From Actinomyces oris (GTDB lineage Bacteria > Actinomycetota > Actinomycetes > Actinomycetales > Actinomycetaceae), in NCBI RefSeq assembly GCF_006546825.1, contig NZ_VICC01000006.1:1-64000 (forward strand): 64,000 bases of DNA, read 5' to 3'. Below the pieces are notes generated by a model. That model was not told where the DNA came from. It did no database searches and worked only from the letters and a program-made list of their open reading frames with translations. Shown one piece after another: positions 3,891 to 33,180 of the stretch. A program made the position numbers and the translations under genes. Position 1 is the stretch's first letter; each line of letters begins with the position of its first letter.

Positions 3891-4975
3891 GCAAGCTGAG
3901 CCCCTCAGACACCAGTGCTGCGGCGCGGCCGGCCGACCCCGCCGACCCTGCCGGTCTCCGCTGGCCCTCGCAGCAGCCGGGAACGGAGCAGCACGGACGG
4001 ACGATCTCGCGCGTCATGCTGCTGCAGCGCGAGCTCAACGACAAGCCCGTCCCCGTCCCCAGGCCCAGTGCTCCCACGGCCACCGCCGTGGCTCGGGCCT
4101 CTGAGGCGCTGCGCGCCCGAGGTGTCGAGCCGGTCGGCCCGGACTGCACCGACCACGTCGACCTCGTCCTGGTGCTCGGCGGCGACGGCACGATCCTGCG
4201 CGCCTTCGAGATCGCCCGCGAACGGGACATCCCCCTGGTGGGCATCAACACCGGCCACGTCGGCTTCCTGGCTGAGGCCGACCCCGACGGCATCGAGCAG
4301 GTCGTCGCGGACCTGGTCGCCGGCCGTTACACGGTCGAGACCCGCACCACCCTGGACGTGGAGGTCATCTGTCCTGACGGGACGGTCACGCGAGACTGGG
4401 CACTCAACGAGGCGGCCCTGGAGAAGCGCGACCGCGCCCGCATGATCGAGGTCGCCATCGGCGTCGACGGCCAGGCCGTCTCCTCCTTCGGCTGCGACGG
4501 CCTCATCATGTCCACCCCCACCGGCTCGACCGCCTACGCCTTCTCCTGCGGGGGCCCCGTCATCTGGCCCGAGGTCGAGGCGCTCCTCCTGGTTCCCGTG
4601 GCCGCGCACGCCCTGTTCACCCGCCCCCTAGTCCTGGGCCCCAACTCCTGCATGGAGGTCGTCGTCCAGCGGGTGGGCTTCGGAGGCGCCGAGATCTGGT
4701 GCGACGGCAGACGCAGCCTGGACGTGCCGGTCGGTGCCAGGATCCGGGTTACCCGGGCGGAGCGTCCGGTGCGGCTGGCACGTTTCAACCAGGCCCCCTT
4801 CGCCAGCCGCCTGGTGCGCAAGTTCGACCTGCCCGTGGAGGGGTGGCGGGCCTCCAGCAGCGCCGATGAGGCCTACTCACCCGAGGAGGACGCGCTGCAC
4901 CAGCCGATGGTCTCCTCCGCCGACACGAGCACCAAAGGCGGAAGCCGGCCGGACTCCTCGGGAGGCACGGCGTGA
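3887..4975 (+). CDS. nadK: NAD kinase
   Basis: A 362-residue NAD kinase that phosphorylates NAD to NADP with ATP or polyphosphate. Seen: LVLGGDGTILRAFE carrying the GGDGT motif (about residue 95), INTGHVGFLAE, NEAALEKR, and the C-terminal glycine-rich MSTPTGSTAYAFSCGGP segment. The N-terminus is longer than usual (~50 residues, Ala/Pro/Ser-rich) and the C-terminal ~45 residues are also a low-complexity extension. The start overlaps the tlyA stop; a later ATG at 4016 would give a more typical length and cannot be excluded. The stop overlaps the GTG of recN. Confidence 0.93.
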   Translation: MSKLSPSDTSAAARPADPADPAGLRWPSQQPGTEQHGRTISRVMLLQRELNDKPVPVPRPSAPTATAVARASEALRARGVEPVGPDCTDHVDLVLVLGGDGTILRAFEIARERDIPLVGINTGHVGFLAEADPDGIEQVVADLVAGRYTVETRTTLDVEVICPDGTVTRDWALNEAALEKRDRARMIEVAIGVDGQAVSSFGCDGLIMSTPTGSTAYAFSCGGPVIWPEVEALLLVPVAAHALFTRPLVLGPNSCMEVVVQRVGFGGAEIWCDGRRSLDVPVGARIRVTRAERPVRLARFNQAPFASRLVRKFDLPVEGWRASSSADEAYSPEEDALHQPMVSSADTSTKGGSRPDSSGGTA

Positions 4976-6780
4976 TCGAGTCTTTGCACATCGAGGACCT
5001 CGGTGTCATCGAGGAGGCCGATCTTCCCCTCAGCCGCGGCCTGACCGCCCTGACCGGTGAGACCGGCGCCGGCAAGACGATGGTACTCACCTCGCTCGGA
5101 CTGCTGCTGGGGCAACGGGCTGAGACCACCATCGTGCGCACCGGTGCCGAGCGCAGCCTGGTCGAGGGCGCGTTCCTGGTCGACCCGGACTCGCGTGTCG
5201 CCGCCCGCGTCGTCGAGGCCGGGGGCGATCTCGACGATGACCTCCTCCTGGCCTCCCGCACGGTCCCCGCCTCCGGACGCTCCCGCGCCTACCTGGGAGG
5301 GCGTTCCGTGCCGGCCTCGGTCCTCAGCGAGGTCGGTGGCCGGCTGGTCTCCGTCCACGGCCAGGCAGACCAGCTGCGACTGCGCTCGACCGCGGCCCAA
5401 CGCGCTGCCCTGGACTCACTGGGCGGCCAGGATCACGCCGCCCTGTGCCGCCGCTACGCCCGGGCCTACCAGGCGCGCCGACAGGCCGACCAGGAGCTCC
5501 AGGAGTGGCAGGCATCCGCTCAGGCTCGAGCCGTCGAGGTCGCCCAGCTGCGCACCTGGCTCGAGGCCCTGGAGGAGGTCGCCCCCCGCAGCGGTGAGGA
5601 CCGGGACCTGACGGCGGAGGCCGAGAGACTCGACCACGCCGAGGACCTGCGCCGGGCCGCCACCGGGGCCCGCACCGCACTCAGCGGGGAGGAGTCCGCC
5701 ACCGGGCAGGCGCCCGACGTCGTCTCCCTCATCGCCCACGCCCACCGCAGCCTGGCCGCCGAGTCCGACCGCGACCCCGCCCTGGCCGAACTGGCCACAC
5801 GCACCCAGCGACTGGGCATCGACGCAGCCGATATCGCCGCCGAGCTGGGCGGGTACCTGTCCTCACTGAGCGCCGACCCGGCTCGCCTCGCCCAGGTCCA
5901 GGACCGCCGAGGAGAGCTCGCCCGCGCCTGCCGGGAGATCGGCGGGCCTCAGGAGCAGCTCGACGACGTCGACGCCCTCCTGGCCTGGGGGCAGCGCGCC
6001 GCCTCGCGCCTGGCCGAGATCGACGGCCCCCAGGACACCGCTACCGTCCTGGCCGAGCGTCTGGCCGCCGCTGACGAGGAGCTGGCCGGTGTTGGTTCCG
6101 AGCTGAGCCGGGCGCGTCAGCAGCTCGGCGAGCGCCTTGAGCAGGCCGTCACCGCCGAGCTGGAGGGCCTGGAGATGAAAGGCGCTCGGCTCGTCGTCGA
6201 GCTGGACCGGCTTGAGGAGCCCGGGCCGACCGGCCTTGAGAGCGTCGCCCTCTTACTCGTCTCACACCCCGGCGCGCCAGCCCTGCCCCTGGGGAAGGGG
6301 GCATCGGGAGGCGAGCTGTCCCGCATCATGCTCGCCCTGGAGGTGGTGCTCGCCGACGCCGCAGCCCTGGCTCGCCCCTCGACCCACACCCGCACCCTCG
6401 TCTTCGACGAGATCGACGCCGGGGTGGGAGGCCGGGCCGCCCGGGAGATCGGCAGGCGCCTGGCCCGTCTGGCGCGACACCACCAGGTCATCGTCGTCAC
6501 CCACCTGGCCCAGGTGGCGGCCTGGGCCGACACCCACCTCGTGGTGCGCAAGGAGACAGTGACCGAGCCTGAATCCCGTCCCGGCCCCTCAGAGGCTGTC
6601 GCAGGGAATGTGAGAAAGTCCCAGCCGGGGCGCACCCGCACACAGGTCTTCGTCGTCGAAGACCAAGAGAGACAACGAGAGCTGGCCCGCATGCTCTCCG
6701 GCCACGAGGACTCCCAGACCGCGGTCCGGCACGCCGCTGAGCTTCTCCAGGAAGCAGACATGGGACAATCCGAGCCGTGA
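4972..6780 (+). CDS. recN: DNA repair protein RecN
   Basis: A 602-residue SMC-like ATPase acting in double-strand break repair. Seen: N-terminal Walker A GETGAGKTM near residue 32; a long central coiled-coil region (about 150-370) rich in Glu, Arg, Ala and Leu; the ABC signature KGASGGELSRIMLALEV around 443; Walker B LVFDEIDAGVGG around 478; and the H-loop VVTHLAQVAA. Length is close to the family norm. GTG start overlapping the nadK stop, and its own stop overlaps the GTG of steA, so the three genes are tightly coupled. Confidence 0.95.
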   Translation: MIESLHIEDLGVIEEADLPLSRGLTALTGETGAGKTMVLTSLGLLLGQRAETTIVRTGAERSLVEGAFLVDPDSRVAARVVEAGGDLDDDLLLASRTVPASGRSRAYLGGRSVPASVLSEVGGRLVSVHGQADQLRLRSTAAQRAALDSLGGQDHAALCRRYARAYQARRQADQELQEWQASAQARAVEVAQLRTWLEALEEVAPRSGEDRDLTAEAERLDHAEDLRRAATGARTALSGEESATGQAPDVVSLIAHAHRSLAAESDRDPALAELATRTQRLGIDAADIAAELGGYLSSLSADPARLAQVQDRRGELARACREIGGPQEQLDDVDALLAWGQRAASRLAEIDGPQDTATVLAERLAAADEELAGVGSELSRARQQLGERLEQAVTAELEGLEMKGARLVVELDRLEEPGPTGLESVALLLVSHPGAPALPLGKGASGGELSRIMLALEVVLADAAALARPSTHTRTLVFDEIDAGVGGRAAREIGRRLARLARHHQVIVVTHLAQVAAWADTHLVVRKETVTEPESRPGPSEAVAGNVRKSQPGRTRTQVFVVEDQERQRELARMLSGHEDSQTAVRHAAELLQEADMGQSEP

Positions 6781-28351: not shown

Positions 28352-29191
28352 TCACCGACTCAGGCGCCATCGGTCGATCGCGGTGAGGAACTCCCGTTCC
28401 AAGGCCCGGGTGAGCCGCGCATCGGGGTAACCCGTGGCTCCGATGAGGCCGAAGAGCCCCCGGACCGCATCGCTGTCGACGCTGCTGGCCAGGGCTGCAA
28501 GACGCTCAGGCGGCAGCCGGGCCTCCATCCGGGAGACCATGACCTGGGCGCGCTGCTCGATCTGCGCCTCTGACAGCTCGGCCGGATCCTGGGAGTAAAG
28601 AGCCAGTGACTCGGCGTCGTAGTCAGGATCCGGGTCCACGAAGAGGAACTCCGCCTCCGGCGGCATCTGGCCGCGATAGCAGGCCAGGTCGGTCAGGTCC
28701 CGCTCCTTGCGCACGGCGCAGCGGGTGGCCTCATCGGCAGCGGCCTGCTCCAGCCGGTCGAAGAAGGCCGCCATACGAGGGGACATCGGTGAGACCGTCG
28801 AACCGGCTTTGGCTCGCTCCAGCAGGCCGGCGAGCATGTCCCTCTGCCTGGCGACCTCGGCCAGGTGATCCTCCACGGCGGCCAGTGCCCCGGCCAGGTC
28901 CTCGACCACGGAGCCTGCCGCCGCGCGGGCTTCAACCGTTTCGGCTGCGGGCGCGTCGTCGGGTTGCTCGACGTCGGTCGTCTCAGGCTCGTCGAGAACG
29001 CGCCTGATGGTCTCCAGGGACACACCGGCCTGGACCAGCCAGCGGATCCGGGAGAGCCGGGCGACGTGGCTCAGGTCGTAGTCGCGCCAGCCGCCCCGTT
29101 CTCCGGGAACTGGAAGCAGACCCAGCGAGTGGTAGTAGCGCACCGTGCGCACGGTTGTCCCAGTCAGCACGGCGATCTCGGCAACGCGCAT
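28352..29191 (-). CDS. MerR-family transcriptional regulator
   Basis: A 279-residue regulator. N-terminal MerR winged helix: MRVAEIAVLTGTTVRTVRYY, HSLGLLPVPGERGGWRDYDL, followed by RLSRIRWLVQAGVSLETIRRV. A coiled-coil dimerisation helix (~100-150) leads to a ~130-residue C-terminal domain without metal-binding Cys, so an organic-ligand or stress sensor of the TipA-like type is more likely than a metal sensor. The ATG at 29191 is where the DNA-binding domain starts; the frame is open upstream. Transcribed away from the polyamine cluster, whose promoter region it shares; control of that cluster is possible but unproven. Confidence 0.85.
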   Translation of the reverse strand: MRVAEIAVLTGTTVRTVRYYHSLGLLPVPGERGGWRDYDLSHVARLSRIRWLVQAGVSLETIRRVLDEPETTDVEQPDDAPAAETVEARAAAGSVVEDLAGALAAVEDHLAEVARQRDMLAGLLERAKAGSTVSPMSPRMAAFFDRLEQAAADEATRCAVRKERDLTDLACYRGQMPPEAEFLFVDPDPDYDAESLALYSQDPAELSEAQIEQRAQVMVSRMEARLPPERLAALASSVDSDAVRGLFGLIGATGYPDARLTRALEREFLTAIDRWRLSR

Positions 29192-29307: not shown

Positions 29308-29385
29308 GTGATGACAGGCGGATCAGGTACCGACGGCGGCAGCGGCGCCCCGTCTTGCTCTCCGCAGGCGGGAGGGTCCTGGTGA
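29308..29385 (+). CDS. Leaderless 25-codon mini-ORF coupled to the first DUF4178 gene
   Basis: GTG-ATG at 29308 opens a 25-codon frame rich in Gly, Ser, Thr and Pro, with one Cys and ending in Trp. Its TGA overlaps the GTG of the DUF4178 gene (GTGA at 29382-29385). It begins six bases after the -10 of P1, exactly where speD begins relative to P2. It may be a translational-coupling leader peptide; no homologue is known to me. Confidence 0.5.
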   Translation: MMTGGSGTDGGSGAPSCSPQAGGSW

Positions 29386-30131
29386 ACGGCACGCGAGGCA
29401 ACCTGCAGGTTGGCGACCTGCTCCAGGGCAGTGCAGGCGCCCTGTCAGTCACAGGCTGTCTACTCTTCAAGGAATGGGACTCCCAGGACCACTGCTTCTA
29501 CTACTGGGAGGAGTGGCAGCTCATTGGGGCCAGCAACGCCGACACCTGGGTCGAGATCGATCACGATCCCGGCGAGGTCCTCTTCTACGAACCCGTTCGT
29601 CTCCAGGAGACGATCGAGCCGTGGGCCCTGACCGTCGGCCAGACGATGCCGCTGACGATCAATGGCGTCCTGCACCGGGGCATGGTCGAGGAGGTGACTA
29701 CCGGCACCCTTGAGAATGTCGTCGGTTCCCCGGTGTGCCCACTCAACATCGGCGAGACCATGACCTACGCCGAGGTGCGGCTGACGGACCCGGCCGGCGT
29801 GACCAGCAGACTGACCATCGACAGCCACCGTTTCCGTGACCTCCTGGCATACCGCAAGACCTCCTTGTCCACTGCGCAGCAGAAGCAGCTCTTCGGGCGC
29901 GTCCTGTACAACCGCCGATCTGCCCCCGGAAGAACCGGCCGGAACATCGGATGCGCGGTCGTCGCCGCCCTCGTCAGTATCGTGCTCGTCGGCGGACTGT
30001 TCTCCGCCTGCTCCAACCCTGGCCGTTCCAATGGCGACGCCGATCCCACCAGCACCTCGCACTCGGGCTCCTCACGGAGCTATCGTCACCGCCCGGTCTA
30101 CGGAGGCGGCGGAGGTGGAGTCGGTAAGTAG
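29382..30131 (+). CDS. DUF4178 domain membrane protein 1
   Basis: A 249-residue protein. Residues ~1-180 are a beta-rich DUF4178-type domain (GNLQVGDLLQGS, FYYWEEWQLIG, TWVEIDHDPGEVLFYEPV); a transmembrane helix follows at ~187-208 (IGCAVVAALVSIVLVGGLFSAC); the C-terminal ~40 residues are Ser/Arg-rich and end in VYGGGGGGVGK. The GTG at 29382 is chosen because it overlaps the mini-ORF stop, follows GGGAGG, and aligns with the start of paralogue 2 (RGDLRVGETLRG). DUF4178 has no established biochemical function; the family is found with DUF350 and spermidine-synthase-like genes. Probably a membrane-associated partner of the polyamine enzymes. Confidence 0.8.
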   Translation: MNGTRGNLQVGDLLQGSAGALSVTGCLLFKEWDSQDHCFYYWEEWQLIGASNADTWVEIDHDPGEVLFYEPVRLQETIEPWALTVGQTMPLTINGVLHRGMVEEVTTGTLENVVGSPVCPLNIGETMTYAEVRLTDPAGVTSRLTIDSHRFRDLLAYRKTSLSTAQQKQLFGRVLYNRRSAPGRTGRNIGCAVVAALVSIVLVGGLFSACSNPGRSNGDADPTSTSHSGSSRSYRHRPVYGGGGGGVGK

Positions 30132-30207
30132 GCCCGCCCCATCGGTGGTGGGCTTCCCACCATGCGTTGTTGACGGCGGGAGAGCGAGGATGGGGACCTC
30201 AGCCCGT

Positions 30208-30236
30208 TTGTCGGCTGCCTGCCTCGTTGCTACCGT
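30208..30236 (+). promoter_or_regulatory. Promoter P2 in front of speD
   Basis: -35 TTGTCG (30208-30213), 17-base spacer, -10 TACCGT (30231-30236), then six bases to the GTG of speD. About 32 of 44 bases match the P1 region, with both hexamers and the flank GTTGCTAC(T/C)GTG conserved. Confidence 0.6.
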
Positions 30237-30242
30237 GCTCGC

Positions 30243-30590
30243 GTGAGTGCGGTGAGCCTGTGTTCTGTCAGCTACAAGATCAGTGGCGCCGAGCCGTATG
30301 CGCTTAACGACCTGTCCACCGTGGAGTCGATTCTCCTCGGCGCCGCCCAGACGGCGGGACTGACAGCCGTCTCCAGCGCTCACCACCGCTTCGAGCCCCA
30401 GGGACTGAGCGCCGTCATCATTCTGTCCGAGTCGCATATCGCCGCTCACACCTGGCCCGAGTCCGGCACCGGCTACGTGACGCTCACCAGCTGTCGCACA
30501 CTGACCCCCGCCCAGATCGAGGCCGTGGGGGAGCTGGTGCGCAAGCGCCTGCGGGCCCAGCAGGTGACCAGCTCGGAGATCACGCTGTGA
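30243..30590 (+). CDS. speH: S-adenosylmethionine decarboxylase, prokaryotic class 1B
   Basis: A 115-residue pyruvoyl enzyme precursor producing decarboxylated AdoMet, the aminopropyl donor for polyamine synthesis. Seen: ILSESHIAAHTWPESG, in which self-cleavage between Glu63 and Ser64 gives the pyruvoyl group; His69 and Cys84 (VTLTSC) sit at the positions of the catalytic His and Cys of the Thermotoga enzyme. GTG start six bases after the P2 -10 and without Shine-Dalgarno, so probably leaderless. Its stop overlaps the GTG of the second DUF4178 gene. No ornithine or arginine decarboxylase is nearby. Confidence 0.88.
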   Translation: MSAVSLCSVSYKISGAEPYALNDLSTVESILLGAAQTAGLTAVSSAHHRFEPQGLSAVIILSESHIAAHTWPESGTGYVTLTSCRTLTPAQIEAVGELVRKRLRAQQVTSSEITL

Positions 30591-31345
30591 GTGTCAGAGG
30601 CGATCTGAGAGTCGGTGAGACGCTTCGCGGTTCCCTGAGGAAGAAGCGCCGCTCCTACACCGTCATGGGACGAGTTGTCCTGAAGCGACGGGATCAGGGA
30701 AGCCGGCGCTTCGTCAAGCGGGAGCAGTGGCGCCTGATCGATGACGAGGGTAAAGAGCTCTGGCTGGAGATCCGTCGAGACACCAACAAGGTGGTACTTC
30801 ACGAGCCGGTTCCTGTTCAGCCGGCGATTGACCCGCTCACCCTCGAGGTCGGTTGGAGCCGGAAGCTGAGAGTCCGCGGCCGGCCGTGCACCGTCGAGGT
30901 CACGAATGTGCGCCGTGCTGAGATCGACCACGAGACCGGGGCCATCGATCATTCCCAGGGGGCTCTCACCGCGACGACGTGTGCCGAGCTCCGCGTGGTG
31001 GAAGCGCAGGGCTCGATCTCCACCATGGTGGTCGATGCGCATCGCCTCCATGCCCGAGAGATCTACAGCGAAACAGGTCTGTCCTCCTCGAAGCAGTACA
31101 AGGTCTTCGGTAGGCCCGTGACCCGGCCGTGGTGGATACCCGGTTTCGTGCGAAGGTTGTGGCGGTGGTTCCCCGCGGCGAGTAGAAGCGATTGGGCACC
31201 CGTGTTCTGGATCGTCCTGATGTTCGTCGTTCTGGTGCTTGCCGAGCTGATCGATGACGATGAGGGTTTCTTTCCCTCAGGAGGCGGCGTCCCCTTCCGG
31301 AACCGCTCGGTCTACGGCGGTGGGGGCGGCGGCGTCGGAAAATGA
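30587..31345 (+). CDS. DUF4178 domain membrane protein 2
   Basis: A 252-residue paralogue of the protein encoded at 29382. The soluble DUF4178-type domain (RGDLRVGETLRGSL, KREQWRLIDDEGKELWLEI) is more basic than in paralogue 1. A transmembrane helix lies at ~206-224 (WAPVFWIVLMFVVLVLAEL), preceded by a Trp/Arg-rich amphipathic patch, and the protein ends in SVYGGGGGGVGK, the same tail as paralogue 1. GTG start overlapping the speD stop. The retained tail despite divergent linkers suggests it is functionally important (inference). Likely acts at the membrane with DUF350 and the spermidine-synthase-like protein. Confidence 0.8.
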   Translation: MSVRGDLRVGETLRGSLRKKRRSYTVMGRVVLKRRDQGSRRFVKREQWRLIDDEGKELWLEIRRDTNKVVLHEPVPVQPAIDPLTLEVGWSRKLRVRGRPCTVEVTNVRRAEIDHETGAIDHSQGALTATTCAELRVVEAQGSISTMVVDAHRLHAREIYSETGLSSSKQYKVFGRPVTRPWWIPGFVRRLWRWFPAASRSDWAPVFWIVLMFVVLVLAELIDDDEGFFPSGGGVPFRNRSVYGGGGGGVGK

Positions 31346-31397
31346 CCTGGAGCCCACTGACTCAATCCCCTCGACGGTCACACACGAAGGAGAAGAC

Positions 31398-31643
31398 ATG
31401 TCGCTCATGACCATCGCTCACCACTCATCGGTCGACCTCAACTGGCAGTCACTGCTGAGCACCGTCGTCTACGCGGTGCTCGGAGTGGTTCTGCTCATGG
31501 TGTTCGCGCTGCTCGTCAACCGCATCTTCCACCTCGACCTCAGACGTGAGCTCATCGAGGACCAGAACATCGGCCTGGGGGTCGCCTTCGCCGGCACGGC
31601 GCTGGCCATCGCCATCATCATCGCCGCCACCATCCTGAGCTGA
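31398..31643 (+). CDS. DUF350 small membrane protein
   Basis: An 81-residue protein with two transmembrane helices (~18-40, LLSTVVYAVLGVVLLMVFAL, and ~58-80, GVAFAGTALAIAIIIAATIL) linked by a short charged loop containing the family-typical DLRRELIEDQNIGLG. DUF350 proteins occur in envelope-stress and polyamine-linked neighbourhoods; the function is not established. ATG at 31398 follows GAAGGAGAAG. It ends 10 bases before the spermidine-synthase-like gene. Confidence 0.88.
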   Translation: MSLMTIAHHSSVDLNWQSLLSTVVYAVLGVVLLMVFALLVNRIFHLDLRRELIEDQNIGLGVAFAGTALAIAIIIAATILS

Positions 31644-31653
31644 GCCGCACACC

Positions 31654-33180
31654 ATGACCCACGGCCGAATCGGGCGACGGGAGAACGTCGCCCTGTTCAC
31701 TGCGGCGCTGCTCGCCGCGATCGGCGGGCTCATCTACGAGCTCATCCTGGGCACGGCCGCCTCCTATCTCCTGGGCGACTCCGTGCTCAGCTTCAGTCTG
31801 GCCACCGGTATCACCCTGTTCGGCATGGGCATCGGCTCGCTGCTGGTCAACCGCTTCCGTGCAGCGCCGGCAGTCGTCTTCGGTGTCAGCGAGGTGCTCC
31901 TGGGCCTCATCGGTGGCAACTCCGTCCTCCTGCTGTACCTGGCCTTTGGGCGCACCCGCCTGCACTGGGTCGTCTTCGGCGGCATCAGCCTGACCATCGG
32001 CATCCTCATCGGCCTGGAGATCCCGCTGCTGGTGCGGACCTTCGCCGCCTTCGGGCGCCGCTCGACCAGCGAGCTGCTCGGCAAGGTCATGGCCATCGAC
32101 TACTTCGGCTCACTGGTGGCCTCCCTGGTCTTCCCCCTGGTGCTCCTCCCGCAGCTCGGCCTCATGCGCGGGGCCTACCTGGTAGGGGCCCTCAACGTGC
32201 TGGTGGCACTGCTCGTCCTGCTCCAGGTGCGCACACCGCGCAAGATCCTGTGGGCGGCCACCGCCGCCGTCGTGGCACTGGTCGGCATGTTCGCAGCCGC
32301 CAACCGCATCGAGCGCAGCGTGGAGGCGCTGACCTACAACGACCCGATCGTCTACTACCAGCAGACCGCCTACCAGAAGGTCGTCCTTACCCAGTACCAG
32401 GACGACCTGCGCCTGTACCTCAACGGCCAGCTCCAGTTCTCCAGCCTGGACGAGGCCAGGTACCACGAGACCCTGTCCGCCAGTGCCATGACCTCGGTGA
32501 AGGAACCCGCCCACGTGCTCGTGCTCGGCGGCGGCGACGGCCTGCTGGCCCGGGAGATCCTGCGCTACCCCAGCGTCACGGACGTCACCATCGTAGACAT
32601 CGACCCTGACGTCACCGAGCTGGCACGGAATAACCGCCTGCTCAAGGACCTCAACCACGCCTCCCTGTCCGACCCCAGGGTCAAGGTCGTCAACGACGAC
32701 GCCTTCACCTACGTCCAGAACTCCAAAGCGACCTACGACGTCGCTCTCATCGACCTGGTCGACCCCTCCAACGAGAAACTCGCCAAGCTCTACTCCACCG
32801 AGTTCTATCGGAACATCGAGGCGCGGCTGGCACCCGAGGGCGTCATGGTCACCCAGGCCACCTCCACCTTCTTCTCACCCCACGCCTTCTCCACAGTGGC
32901 CAGCACCGTCGCCGCCGCTCAGCCGGATCGACAGATCCTGCCCTTCTCCACCAATGTCCCCTCCTTCGGGGAGTGGGGCTTCGTGCTGTCCACCAGGACG
33001 CCGCAGAACCTCATCAGCCAGCCGCTGCCCGAAGGCCTGACTTACCAGGACCGGAAGACCCTGGAGTTCATCATGCGAACCAAGCCGGCCCGCACCGAGT
33101 TCATGGAGCCCTCCACCCTCCTGCATCCGCGGATCGTCGAGGTCTACAACCAAGACATGCGGCAGTGGCGCTACTACTGA
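31654..33180 (+). CDS. Membrane-anchored spermidine synthase-like protein
   Basis: A 508-residue fusion: about seven transmembrane helices in the first ~215 residues (for example ALLAAIGGLIYELILGTAAS) and a cytosolic aminopropyltransferase domain from ~225. Seen in the latter: YQKVVLTQYQDDLRLYLNGQ, SSLDEARYHETLS, the AdoMet-type loop VLVLGGGDGLLAREI (~290), VTIVDIDPDVTE and VALIDLVDPSNE carrying the catalytic-type Asp. With AdoMet decarboxylase in the same cluster, transfer of aminopropyl from decarboxylated AdoMet is plausible; the acceptor (putrescine, spermidine or something membrane-exposed) is unknown. No strong ribosome binding site, suggesting coupling to DUF350. Confidence 0.88.
   Translation: MTHGRIGRRENVALFTAALLAAIGGLIYELILGTAASYLLGDSVLSFSLATGITLFGMGIGSLLVNRFRAAPAVVFGVSEVLLGLIGGNSVLLLYLAFGRTRLHWVVFGGISLTIGILIGLEIPLLVRTFAAFGRRSTSELLGKVMAIDYFGSLVASLVFPLVLLPQLGLMRGAYLVGALNVLVALLVLLQVRTPRKILWAATAAVVALVGMFAAANRIERSVEALTYNDPIVYYQQTAYQKVVLTQYQDDLRLYLNGQLQFSSLDEARYHETLSASAMTSVKEPAHVLVLGGGDGLLAREILRYPSVTDVTIVDIDPDVTELARNNRLLKDLNHASLSDPRVKVVNDDAFTYVQNSKATYDVALIDLVDPSNEKLAKLYSTEFYRNIEARLAPEGVMVTQATSTFFSPHAFSTVASTVAAAQPDRQILPFSTNVPSFGEWGFVLSTRTPQNLISQPLPEGLTYQDRKTLEFIMRTKPARTEFMEPSTLLHPRIVEVYNQDMRQWRYY

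What the first reader, a model, noticed from the sequence alone, without database searches (positions are those of the whole stretch)
29308..33180. Compact polyamine-membrane cluster: DUF4178 x2, AdoMet decarboxylase, DUF350, membrane spermidine synthase
Five genes, partly overlapping, combine a pyruvoyl AdoMet decarboxylase, a 7-helix aminopropyltransferase fusion, two paralogous single-pass DUF4178 proteins and a two-helix DUF350 protein. There is no ornithine/arginine decarboxylase or agmatinase, so the putrescine source is external or the acceptor is not putrescine. From memory, DUF350, DUF4178 and spermidine synthase have been noted together near PspA-type envelope-stress genes; here no PspA is present. 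I infer a self-contained system that makes or modifies aminopropylated molecules at the membrane, possibly for envelope stabilisation.
Basis: partly seen in the sequence, partly recalled or inferred. Interest (0 to 1): 0.75.

Follow-up and report, generated by a model that had tools for sequence, protein, structure and literature searches.

The report
Shared tail beside a membrane aminopropyltransferase
A five-gene bacterial cluster pairs a membrane enzyme of the spermidine-synthase kind with partner proteins that end in the same glycine-rich, lysine-terminated tail, and the same kind of tail recurs next to that enzyme in distant bacteria, which suggests that the tail, rather than free putrescine, may be what the enzyme acts on.

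Summary
The cluster is real: SpeD, a DUF350 protein, a 7-TM spermidine-synthase fusion (SpeE) and two single-pass proteins whose DUF4178 label is weak; the first gene starts at 29382. Among 14 relatives the tail is 88% identical pairwise, the preceding TM/linker 24%. Lysine-ended Gly-rich tails recur beside membrane SpeE on other scaffolds (DUF4247 lipoproteins, tiny single-TM peptides) in other Actinobacteria, Nitrospirota, Bacillota and Proteobacteria: 57 of 66 loci whose SpeE has P[ST]FGxWG, against 2 of 6491 control ORFs, both lying beside DUF4178 genes in SpeE loci. In 40 same-genus genomes SpeD, SpeE and tail are present or absent together, with one decayed exception. Loop charges of 53 SpeEs and cysteine depletion put the catalytic domain outside the membrane, the tails' side. 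Best reading: SpeE modifies the terminal lysine of exported tails; in this genus SpeD supplies an aminopropyl donor. The modification is unproven, and 30 of 41 other membrane-SpeE genomes lack SpeD, so the donor elsewhere is open. The operon type is published; I found neither the tail nor outward catalysis in print.

The parts
28352..29191 (-). Divergent MerR-family regulator beside the cluster; loosely linked, probably not a core part
   Evidence: Pfam MerR_1 E 7.5e-17. Found in 8 of 13 same-genus cluster regions searched: directly next to the cluster in L076, L083-L086, away from it in L078 and L081, partial in L169; not found in L075, L077, L079, L080, L082.
29382..30131 (+). Tailed protein A: beta-rich N-terminal domain (weakly DUF4178-like), one TM, Gly-rich tail
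   Evidence: Start GTG 29382; TM at residues 189-207; aligned in A3.
30096..30131 (+). C-terminal tail VYGGGGGGVGK and stop of protein A
30243..30590 (+). SpeD, class 1b AdoMet decarboxylase proenzyme
   Evidence: PF02675 E 4e-23; aligns to 1tlu/2iii with the SESH, H and C of T. maritima S63, H68, C83 kept; TIGR03330 72.6 bits, just under its cut-off 75.65.
30587..31345 (+). Tailed protein B, paralogue of A; 4-base overlap with speD
   Evidence: AlphaFold model pLDDT 79.6: beta domain, TM helix 204-223, disordered tail.
31310..31345 (+). C-terminal tail VYGGGGGGVGK and stop of protein B
   Evidence: 7 of 8 codons of GGGGGVGK differ from those of protein A.
31398..31643 (+). DUF350, two TM helices
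   Evidence: PF03994 E 5.6e-13; segments 22-40 and 62-80.
31654..33180 (+). Membrane SpeE: 7-TM domain fused to an aminopropyltransferase domain
31693..32301 (+). 7-TM part of SpeE with buried charges E29, E122, D149
   Evidence: Invariant in 53 of 53 aligned sequences; loop charges N-in.
32341..33177 (+). SpeE catalytic domain (GGGDG, DLVDP, PSFGEWG), predicted outside the membrane

Best explanation
The cluster is an envelope protein-modification system. SpeD makes decarboxylated AdoMet. The 7-TM SpeE, helped by DUF350, transfers its aminopropyl group to the side-chain amine of the C-terminal lysine of the Gly-rich tails of the two single-pass proteins. The lysine side chain (an aminobutyl group) takes the place of putrescine, and the glycines let the chain end enter the narrow acceptor tunnel. 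The catalytic domain and the tails both face outwards, so the donor would have to cross the membrane, perhaps through the SpeE TM domain with its invariant E29, E122 and D149. Shown from sequence: the cluster, the invariant tail, its recurrence beside this enzyme on different scaffolds, the co-gain and co-loss in the genus. Inferred from sequence statistics: the sidedness. Inferred from chemistry and analogy only: that the terminal lysine is the acceptor, that the group is aminopropyl, and how the donor gets out.
For: Tail: both paralogues end identically, 7 of 8 codons differing; 20 of 20 tailed same-genus genomes checked keep [YH]GGGG[GR]G[VI]GK; pairwise identity 88% in the tail, 41% in the N-domain, 24% in the TM/linker. 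Recurrence: a strict rule (last residue K, >=4 G in the last 10) finds a tailed ORF within 3 kb upstream of SpeE in 60 of 100 loci, 57 of 66 where SpeE keeps P[ST]FGxWG and 3 of 34 where it does not; 2 of 6491 other ORFs meet it, and both lie beside DUF4178 genes in SpeE loci (L148, L166). Scaffolds: DUF4247, proteins without a Pfam family, 49-67 residue single-TM peptides, DUF4178-like fusions; in other phyla DUF4178 and tail are separate neighbouring genes. Co-occurrence: 20 of 20 tailed genomes have one SpeD and one SpeE, 19 of 20 tail-less ones have neither. Sidedness: mean K/R per loop N 1.87, L1-2 0.09, L2-3 2.23, L3-4 0.17, L4-5 2.92, L5-6 0.77, L6-7 3.23 over 53 SpeEs; Cys 20 in 15336 catalytic residues against 114 in 11757 of the TM part; 64 of 64 tailed ORFs have a hydrophobic segment before the tail, K/R richer on its N side in 43 and on its C side in 5. 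Enzyme: donor and catalytic residues D295, D367, D370, Q261, Y270 in 53 of 53. Analogy: standalone ATP-grasp ligases (E. coli YgiC and YjfC are annotated peptide-spermidine ligases) sit beside proteins ending in Gly/Ser: 14 of 16 loci, 11 ending in G and none in K, as carboxylate chemistry would ask.
Against: No modification has been observed. 30 of 41 genomes with the same SpeE family (26 of 37 leaving out four CGGGS-tail Streptomyces/Kitasatospora), and five of seven earlier actinobacterial genomes, have no SpeD, so aminopropyl cannot be the general donor group. An outward catalytic domain has no known source of AdoMet or dcAdoMet. Sidedness rests on statistics: my segment finder gave seven TM in 6 of 9 SpeEs and six in L134, L138 and L148, and AlphaFold joins TM5 and TM6 into one helix 138-191. 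R269 is also kept in the Streptomyces-type SpeEs without lysine tails. L159 has SpeE and no tail; L076 lacks DUF350; a tail-less copy exists in L082. The counts are not corrected for shared ancestry.
Confidence: 0.42

Rival explanations
1. Docking or regulatory tail without covalent change: the lysine-ended tail enters the SpeE acceptor site (or the DUF350/SpeE pore) as a pseudo-substrate and tethers or gates the complex; SpeE makes or senses a small polyamine.
For: Same tail conservation, co-occurrence and shared side. Absence of SpeD from 30 of 41 genomes fits a binding role better than aminopropyl transfer.
Against: Catalytic and donor-site residues are invariant in 53 of 53 SpeEs, odd for a pure receptor.
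Confidence: 0.25
2. Lysine-tail modification with another donor group in SpeD-less species: SpeE uses AdoMet itself (3-amino-3-carboxypropyl or methyl transfer), and the window's genus added SpeD later.
For: SpeD absent from 30 of 41 genomes with the enzyme while tail, DUF350 and SpeE stay together.
Against: GGGDG aspartate D295 is invariant, the motif of aminopropyltransferases (PMC11107197 section 10). In the window's genus SpeD is never parted from SpeE in 40 genomes.
Confidence: 0.15
3. Ordinary membrane-anchored spermidine synthase using imported putrescine, with accessory envelope proteins whose tails have an unrelated role.
For: SpeE passes the aminopropyltransferase equivalog cut-off and has the full fold; SpeD is present in the window.
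Against: No ODC/ADC family found; tail recurrence is specific to SpeE loci and tracks the P[ST]FGxWG loop; predicted outward catalytic domain.
Confidence: 0.12
4. One reading: aminopropylation of a lipid or other small envelope molecule.
For: Membrane enzyme next to small membrane proteins; envelope-stress company in other phyla (PMC11237479).
Against: Gives no reason for an invariant lysine-ended tail on several scaffolds.
Confidence: 0.06

Closest known systems
CesT/Tir-PspA operon with 7TM-fused spermidine-synthase domain, DUF350, lipoprotein (Ctha_1186) and DUF4178 (Ravi et al. 2024, PMC11237479; passages read)
   Same: Same 7TM-SpeE, DUF350 and (weakly) DUF4178; the authors also suggest polyamine sensing or aminopropylation of other substrates
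   Different: The window has SpeD and no adjacent PspA or CesT/Tir, and DUF4178-like domain, TM and tail are one polypeptide; the passages seen do not mention a lysine-ended tail ('glycine-rich' and 'lysine' absent from the main text) or the side of the catalytic domain
DUF4247-DUF350-SpeE clusters of Actinobacteria (variants named in the same paper)
   Same: Tail, DUF350 and SpeE in the same order
   Different: Scaffold is DUF4247, SpeD is usually absent from the genome
E. coli YjfM/YgiB (DUF1190) with YjfC/YgiC peptide-spermidine ligases (Pederick et al. 2023, seen only as a citation and as RefSeq product names)
   Same: DUF350 neighbour (yjfL), Gly-rich C-terminal tail on the partner, polyamine chemistry
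   Different: ATP-grasp ligase instead of SpeE; tail ends in Gly/Ser, not Lys
Soluble spermidine synthases (e.g. 1uir, 7xif, 1iy9)
   Same: Fold, GGGDG and catalytic aspartates
   Different: No TM domain; V, I or Y where all 53 membrane SpeEs have R269

Membership tests
Class 1b AdoMet decarboxylase (SpeD) | Pfam PF02675 over cut-off | tested here: met
   82.3 bits, cut-off 25
Class 1b AdoMet decarboxylase (SpeD) | Equivalents of T. maritima S63, H68 and C83 | tested here: met
   Alignment to 1tlu; residues named in PMC10407285 (passage)
Class 1b AdoMet decarboxylase (SpeD) | NCBIfam equivalog TIGR03330 over cut-off | tested here: not met
   72.6 bits, cut-off 75.65
Class 1b AdoMet decarboxylase (SpeD) | Decarboxylates AdoMet, not ornithine or arginine | not testable with these tools
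   Needs an assay
Membrane polyamine aminopropyltransferase (NF002956/PRK03612) | Equivalog score over cut-off | tested here: met
   548 bits, cut-off 472
Membrane polyamine aminopropyltransferase (NF002956/PRK03612) | Aminopropyltransferase fold and donor/catalytic motifs | tested here: met
Membrane polyamine aminopropyltransferase (NF002956/PRK03612) | Makes spermidine from putrescine | not testable with these tools
   Needs an assay
DUF350 (PF03994) | Pfam score over cut-off | tested here: met
   49.6 bits, cut-off 26
DUF4178 (PF13785) | Pfam score over cut-off for the two window proteins | tested here: not met
   No match for either
DUF4178 (PF13785) | Homology through relatives | tested here: inconclusive
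   3 of 14 family members match, best E 7.2e-6; hhalign not significant; Foldseek in PDB gives nothing at E<=0.001
PspA-CesT/Tir-SpeE operon | CesT/Tir-PspA dyad in the operon | tested here: not met
   None of the five proteins is PspA or CesT/Tir, nor is the divergent MerR gene; the rest of the genome was not searched
PspA-CesT/Tir-SpeE operon | 7TM-SpeE with DUF350 | tested here: met
Peptide-spermidine ligase (YgiC/YjfC) system | ATP-grasp ligase PF03738 in the cluster | tested here: not met
   No such match among the five proteins

The most novel reading that the evidence does not exclude
A new kind of bacterial protein modification: an outward-facing, membrane-embedded spermidine-synthase relative alkylates the C-terminal lysine of Gly-rich tails on exported proteins (aminopropyl where SpeD is present, possibly another AdoMet-derived group elsewhere), so that envelope proteins of many phyla carry a polyamine-like chain end. 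The ATP-grasp/DUF1190 systems of Proteobacteria would reach a similar end product by amide ligation to Gly/Ser-ended tails.
Probability: 0.4. Interest if true: 0.92.

Novelty: new variant of a known kind. Interest (0 to 1): 0.74.

Why it matters
DUF350-linked membrane spermidine synthases occur across bacteria, and the papers I could search give them no demonstrated substrate. A lysine-ended tail that accompanies the enzyme on different scaffolds, on the predicted same side of the membrane, names a candidate substrate and turns an open question into a mass-spectrometry test. If true, it adds a protein modification that uses the aminopropyl-transfer chemistry known from small polyamines, and it raises the question how AdoMet-derived donors reach the outside of the membrane.

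Tried and rejected
DUF4178 by profile comparison: hhalign of 14 tailed proteins against three DUF4178 proteins gave probability 1.7; kept as weak on Pfam evidence only. Fold of the beta domain: no PDB match at E<=0.001. NCBIfam named neither single-pass protein. A SpeD turned ornithine decarboxylase as putrescine source was considered: the processing residues are kept, but the four residues that PMC10407285 calls diagnostic were not mapped, so it is not excluded. MerR as a core part was rejected because it is not consistently linked.

Streptomyces-type SpeEs: no SpeE locus without P[ST]FGxWG has a strict lysine tail except L101, L108 and L117; many have instead a short neighbour ending like CGGGGGGCGGGS, left unexplained. 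Of the nine P[ST]FGxWG loci without a strict tail, seven have a looser K-ended tail found by a later, post hoc look (L126, L150; L139, L140, L148, L165, L166), one contig ends 262 bases upstream (L100) and one has none (L159). Of 22 ligase loci read (L176-L197; L198, a fragment, was left out), 16 are standalone and 14 of these have a Gly/Ser-ended neighbour; L179 and L182 do not; the six long ones do not. Four of the partners were scanned with Pfam: three are DUF1190, L191 has no family. In one search minus-strand loci were read on the wrong strand and gave nonsense; one search repeats the check correctly. Soluble-SpeE cysteine counts come from only 4 of 10 loci.
Full report
What is there. The window lies in a 3.17-Mb actinobacterial genome (that it is Actinomyces-like is my recall, no call names it). 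On the + strand lie, in order: tailed protein A (29382-30131), SpeD (30243-30590), tailed protein B (30587-31345), DUF350 (31398-31643) and membrane SpeE (31654-33180). Gaps are 111, -4, 52 and 10 bases, which fits co-expression. SpeD keeps the processing and catalytic residues. SpeE is a seven-helix domain fused to an aminopropyltransferase fold. The DUF4178 label of A and B is weak.

The tail. A and B are about 30% identical yet both end in VYGGGGGGVGK. The DNA pattern of the tail occurs twice in the window, 0.00 times in shuffles, and 7 of 8 codons differ between the copies, so selection acts on the amino acids. In 119 relatives searched with protein B, 20 genomes, all of the window's genus, have a match; in 20 of these 20 a tailed ORF is present, with [VP][YH]GGGG[GR]G[VI]GK at the very end. 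Pairwise identity over 14 aligned proteins is 88% in the last 12 columns, 24% in the TM/linker and 41% in the N-domain.

Co-occurrence in the genus. Of the 119 relatives I searched 40 for SpeD and SpeE: the 20 tailed ones and the first 20 listed without a match. All 20 tailed genomes have one SpeD and one SpeE, beside the tail. Of the 20 others, 19 have neither. The exception, G023, has SpeE next to a SpeD that is split between two frames, and no match to A, B or DUF350 nearby: a decaying cluster, or a sequencing fault.

Recurrence elsewhere. By a strict rule a lysine-ended Gly-rich ORF lies within 3 kb upstream of SpeE in 60 of 100 loci; 2 of 6491 other ORFs meet the rule. Both of these lie beside DUF4178 genes in SpeE loci L148 and L166, so no clear false positive was seen. 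The scaffolds differ: DUF4247 lipoproteins in other Actinobacteria, ending mostly in RGGGPGSGK or the like; proteins with no Pfam family in Nitrospirota, Tepidibacter, Knoellia and a deltaproteobacterium; peptides of 49-67 residues with one TM in gamma- and epsilon-type proteobacteria and others. A Sediminibacillus lipoprotein matches DUF4247 below the cut-off (E 9.5e-5). Distant homology among some of these scaffolds is not excluded. In L134, L138, L139, L140, L158, L165 and L166 separate DUF4178 genes lie in the same loci; in the window's genus the DUF4178-like domain and the tail are one chain, as a fusion of two interacting partners would be.

Link to the enzyme. Where SpeE keeps the loop P[ST]FGxWG, 57 of 66 loci have a strict tail; where it does not, 3 of 34 do (Fisher p 1.6e-14, not corrected for ancestry, and most of the 34 are Streptomyces and allies). 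Seven of the nine exceptions have a looser K-ended tail, found post hoc; one contig is cut off (L100) and L159 has none.

Sidedness. Over 53 SpeEs the K/R counts of the loops alternate strongly, with N-terminus, L2-3, L4-5 and L6-7 positive. With seven helices this puts the catalytic domain outside. Its cysteine content is 20 in 15336 residues, against 114 in 11757 in the TM part and 12 in 1124 in four soluble SpeEs. The tails follow a hydrophobic segment in 64 of 64 ORFs, with more K/R on its N side in 43 and on its C side in 5, so they too should be outside. Caveats: a simple segment finder saw seven helices in only 6 of 9 SpeEs, and the AlphaFold model, whose coordinates I could not read, shows one continuous helix 138-191 where two passes are expected.

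Donor. SpeD is locked to the cluster in the window's genus but absent from 30 of 41 other membrane-SpeE genomes and from five of seven earlier ones. Aminopropyl transfer is therefore a claim for this genus; elsewhere AdoMet itself or another donor must be considered. The acceptor is unlikely to be home-made putrescine here: the only PF02784 protein is most like LysA, PF01276 is absent, and the one ureohydrolase best matches arginase, below its cut-off.

A parallel. In E. coli the DUF350 gene yjfL is followed by yjfM (DUF1190) and yjfC, annotated as a peptide-spermidine ligase; YjfM and YgiB end in GG. In 16 standalone-ligase loci from 120 genomes of the phylum of G293 searched, 14 have a neighbour ending in Gly or Ser, none in Lys. 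A ligase needs a carboxylate and an alkyl-transferase needs an amine; the tails differ in just that way. The experimental paper (Pederick et al. 2023) was seen only as a citation, so what peptide was used is not known to me.

Literature. PMC11237479 (passages) describes the operon type and suggests aminopropylation of other substrates; 'glycine-rich' and 'lysine' do not occur in its main text; supplements were not read. Searches for DUF4178, DUF350 with spermidine synthase, DUF4247, aminopropylation with lysine and six phrases such as aminopropyllysine (none found) gave no report of such tails; only listings and the passages named here were seen, and most subscription papers are not held. Other papers: PMC10407285 (passages), PMC11107197 (passages and section 10), PMC12568646, PMC10948618 and PMC12270671 (passages).

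Verdict. That the tail is a functional partner of SpeE I hold likely (about 0.85); that both face outwards, about 0.7; that the terminal lysine is modified by SpeE, with an aminopropyl group in this genus, about 0.42.

Noticed in passing
L072:7803-8258 (-), L073:3568-4053 (+), L074:8329-8691 (-) and many Streptomyces loci: Streptomyces-type SpeEs that lack P[ST]FGxWG often have a nearby short protein ending in CGGGGGGCGGGS-like runs (no Pfam family for the L072 one), with DUF2617 beside it in L072: possibly a related system with another tail chemistry.
   Followed up: partly
L176-L191 and L167 8388-9026: Partners of standalone ATP-grasp peptide-spermidine-ligase relatives (DUF1190 in three of four tested) end in Gly/Ser-rich tails, usually GG, often after an RGGFG motif: candidate natural substrates of that ligase.
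   Followed up: partly
L169 (G023), about 4573-6577 (-): A same-genus genome keeps SpeE and a SpeD split over two frames but has lost the tailed gene and DUF350.
   Followed up: partly
L082:5084-5761 (+): A tail-less copy of the DUF4178-like protein sits between speD and the tailed copy.
   Followed up: no
L159 (Cardiobacteriaceae MAG): Membrane SpeE with PSFGxWG but no tail or DUF350 seen nearby; its genome has SpeD.
   Followed up: no
window 28352-29191 (-): MerR-family regulator divergent from the cluster, adjacent in close relatives but not in all.
   Followed up: partly
G000:C6:490174-490770 (-): A lone arginase/agmatinase-family gene in the window's genome, best match arginase below its cut-off.
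   Followed up: partly
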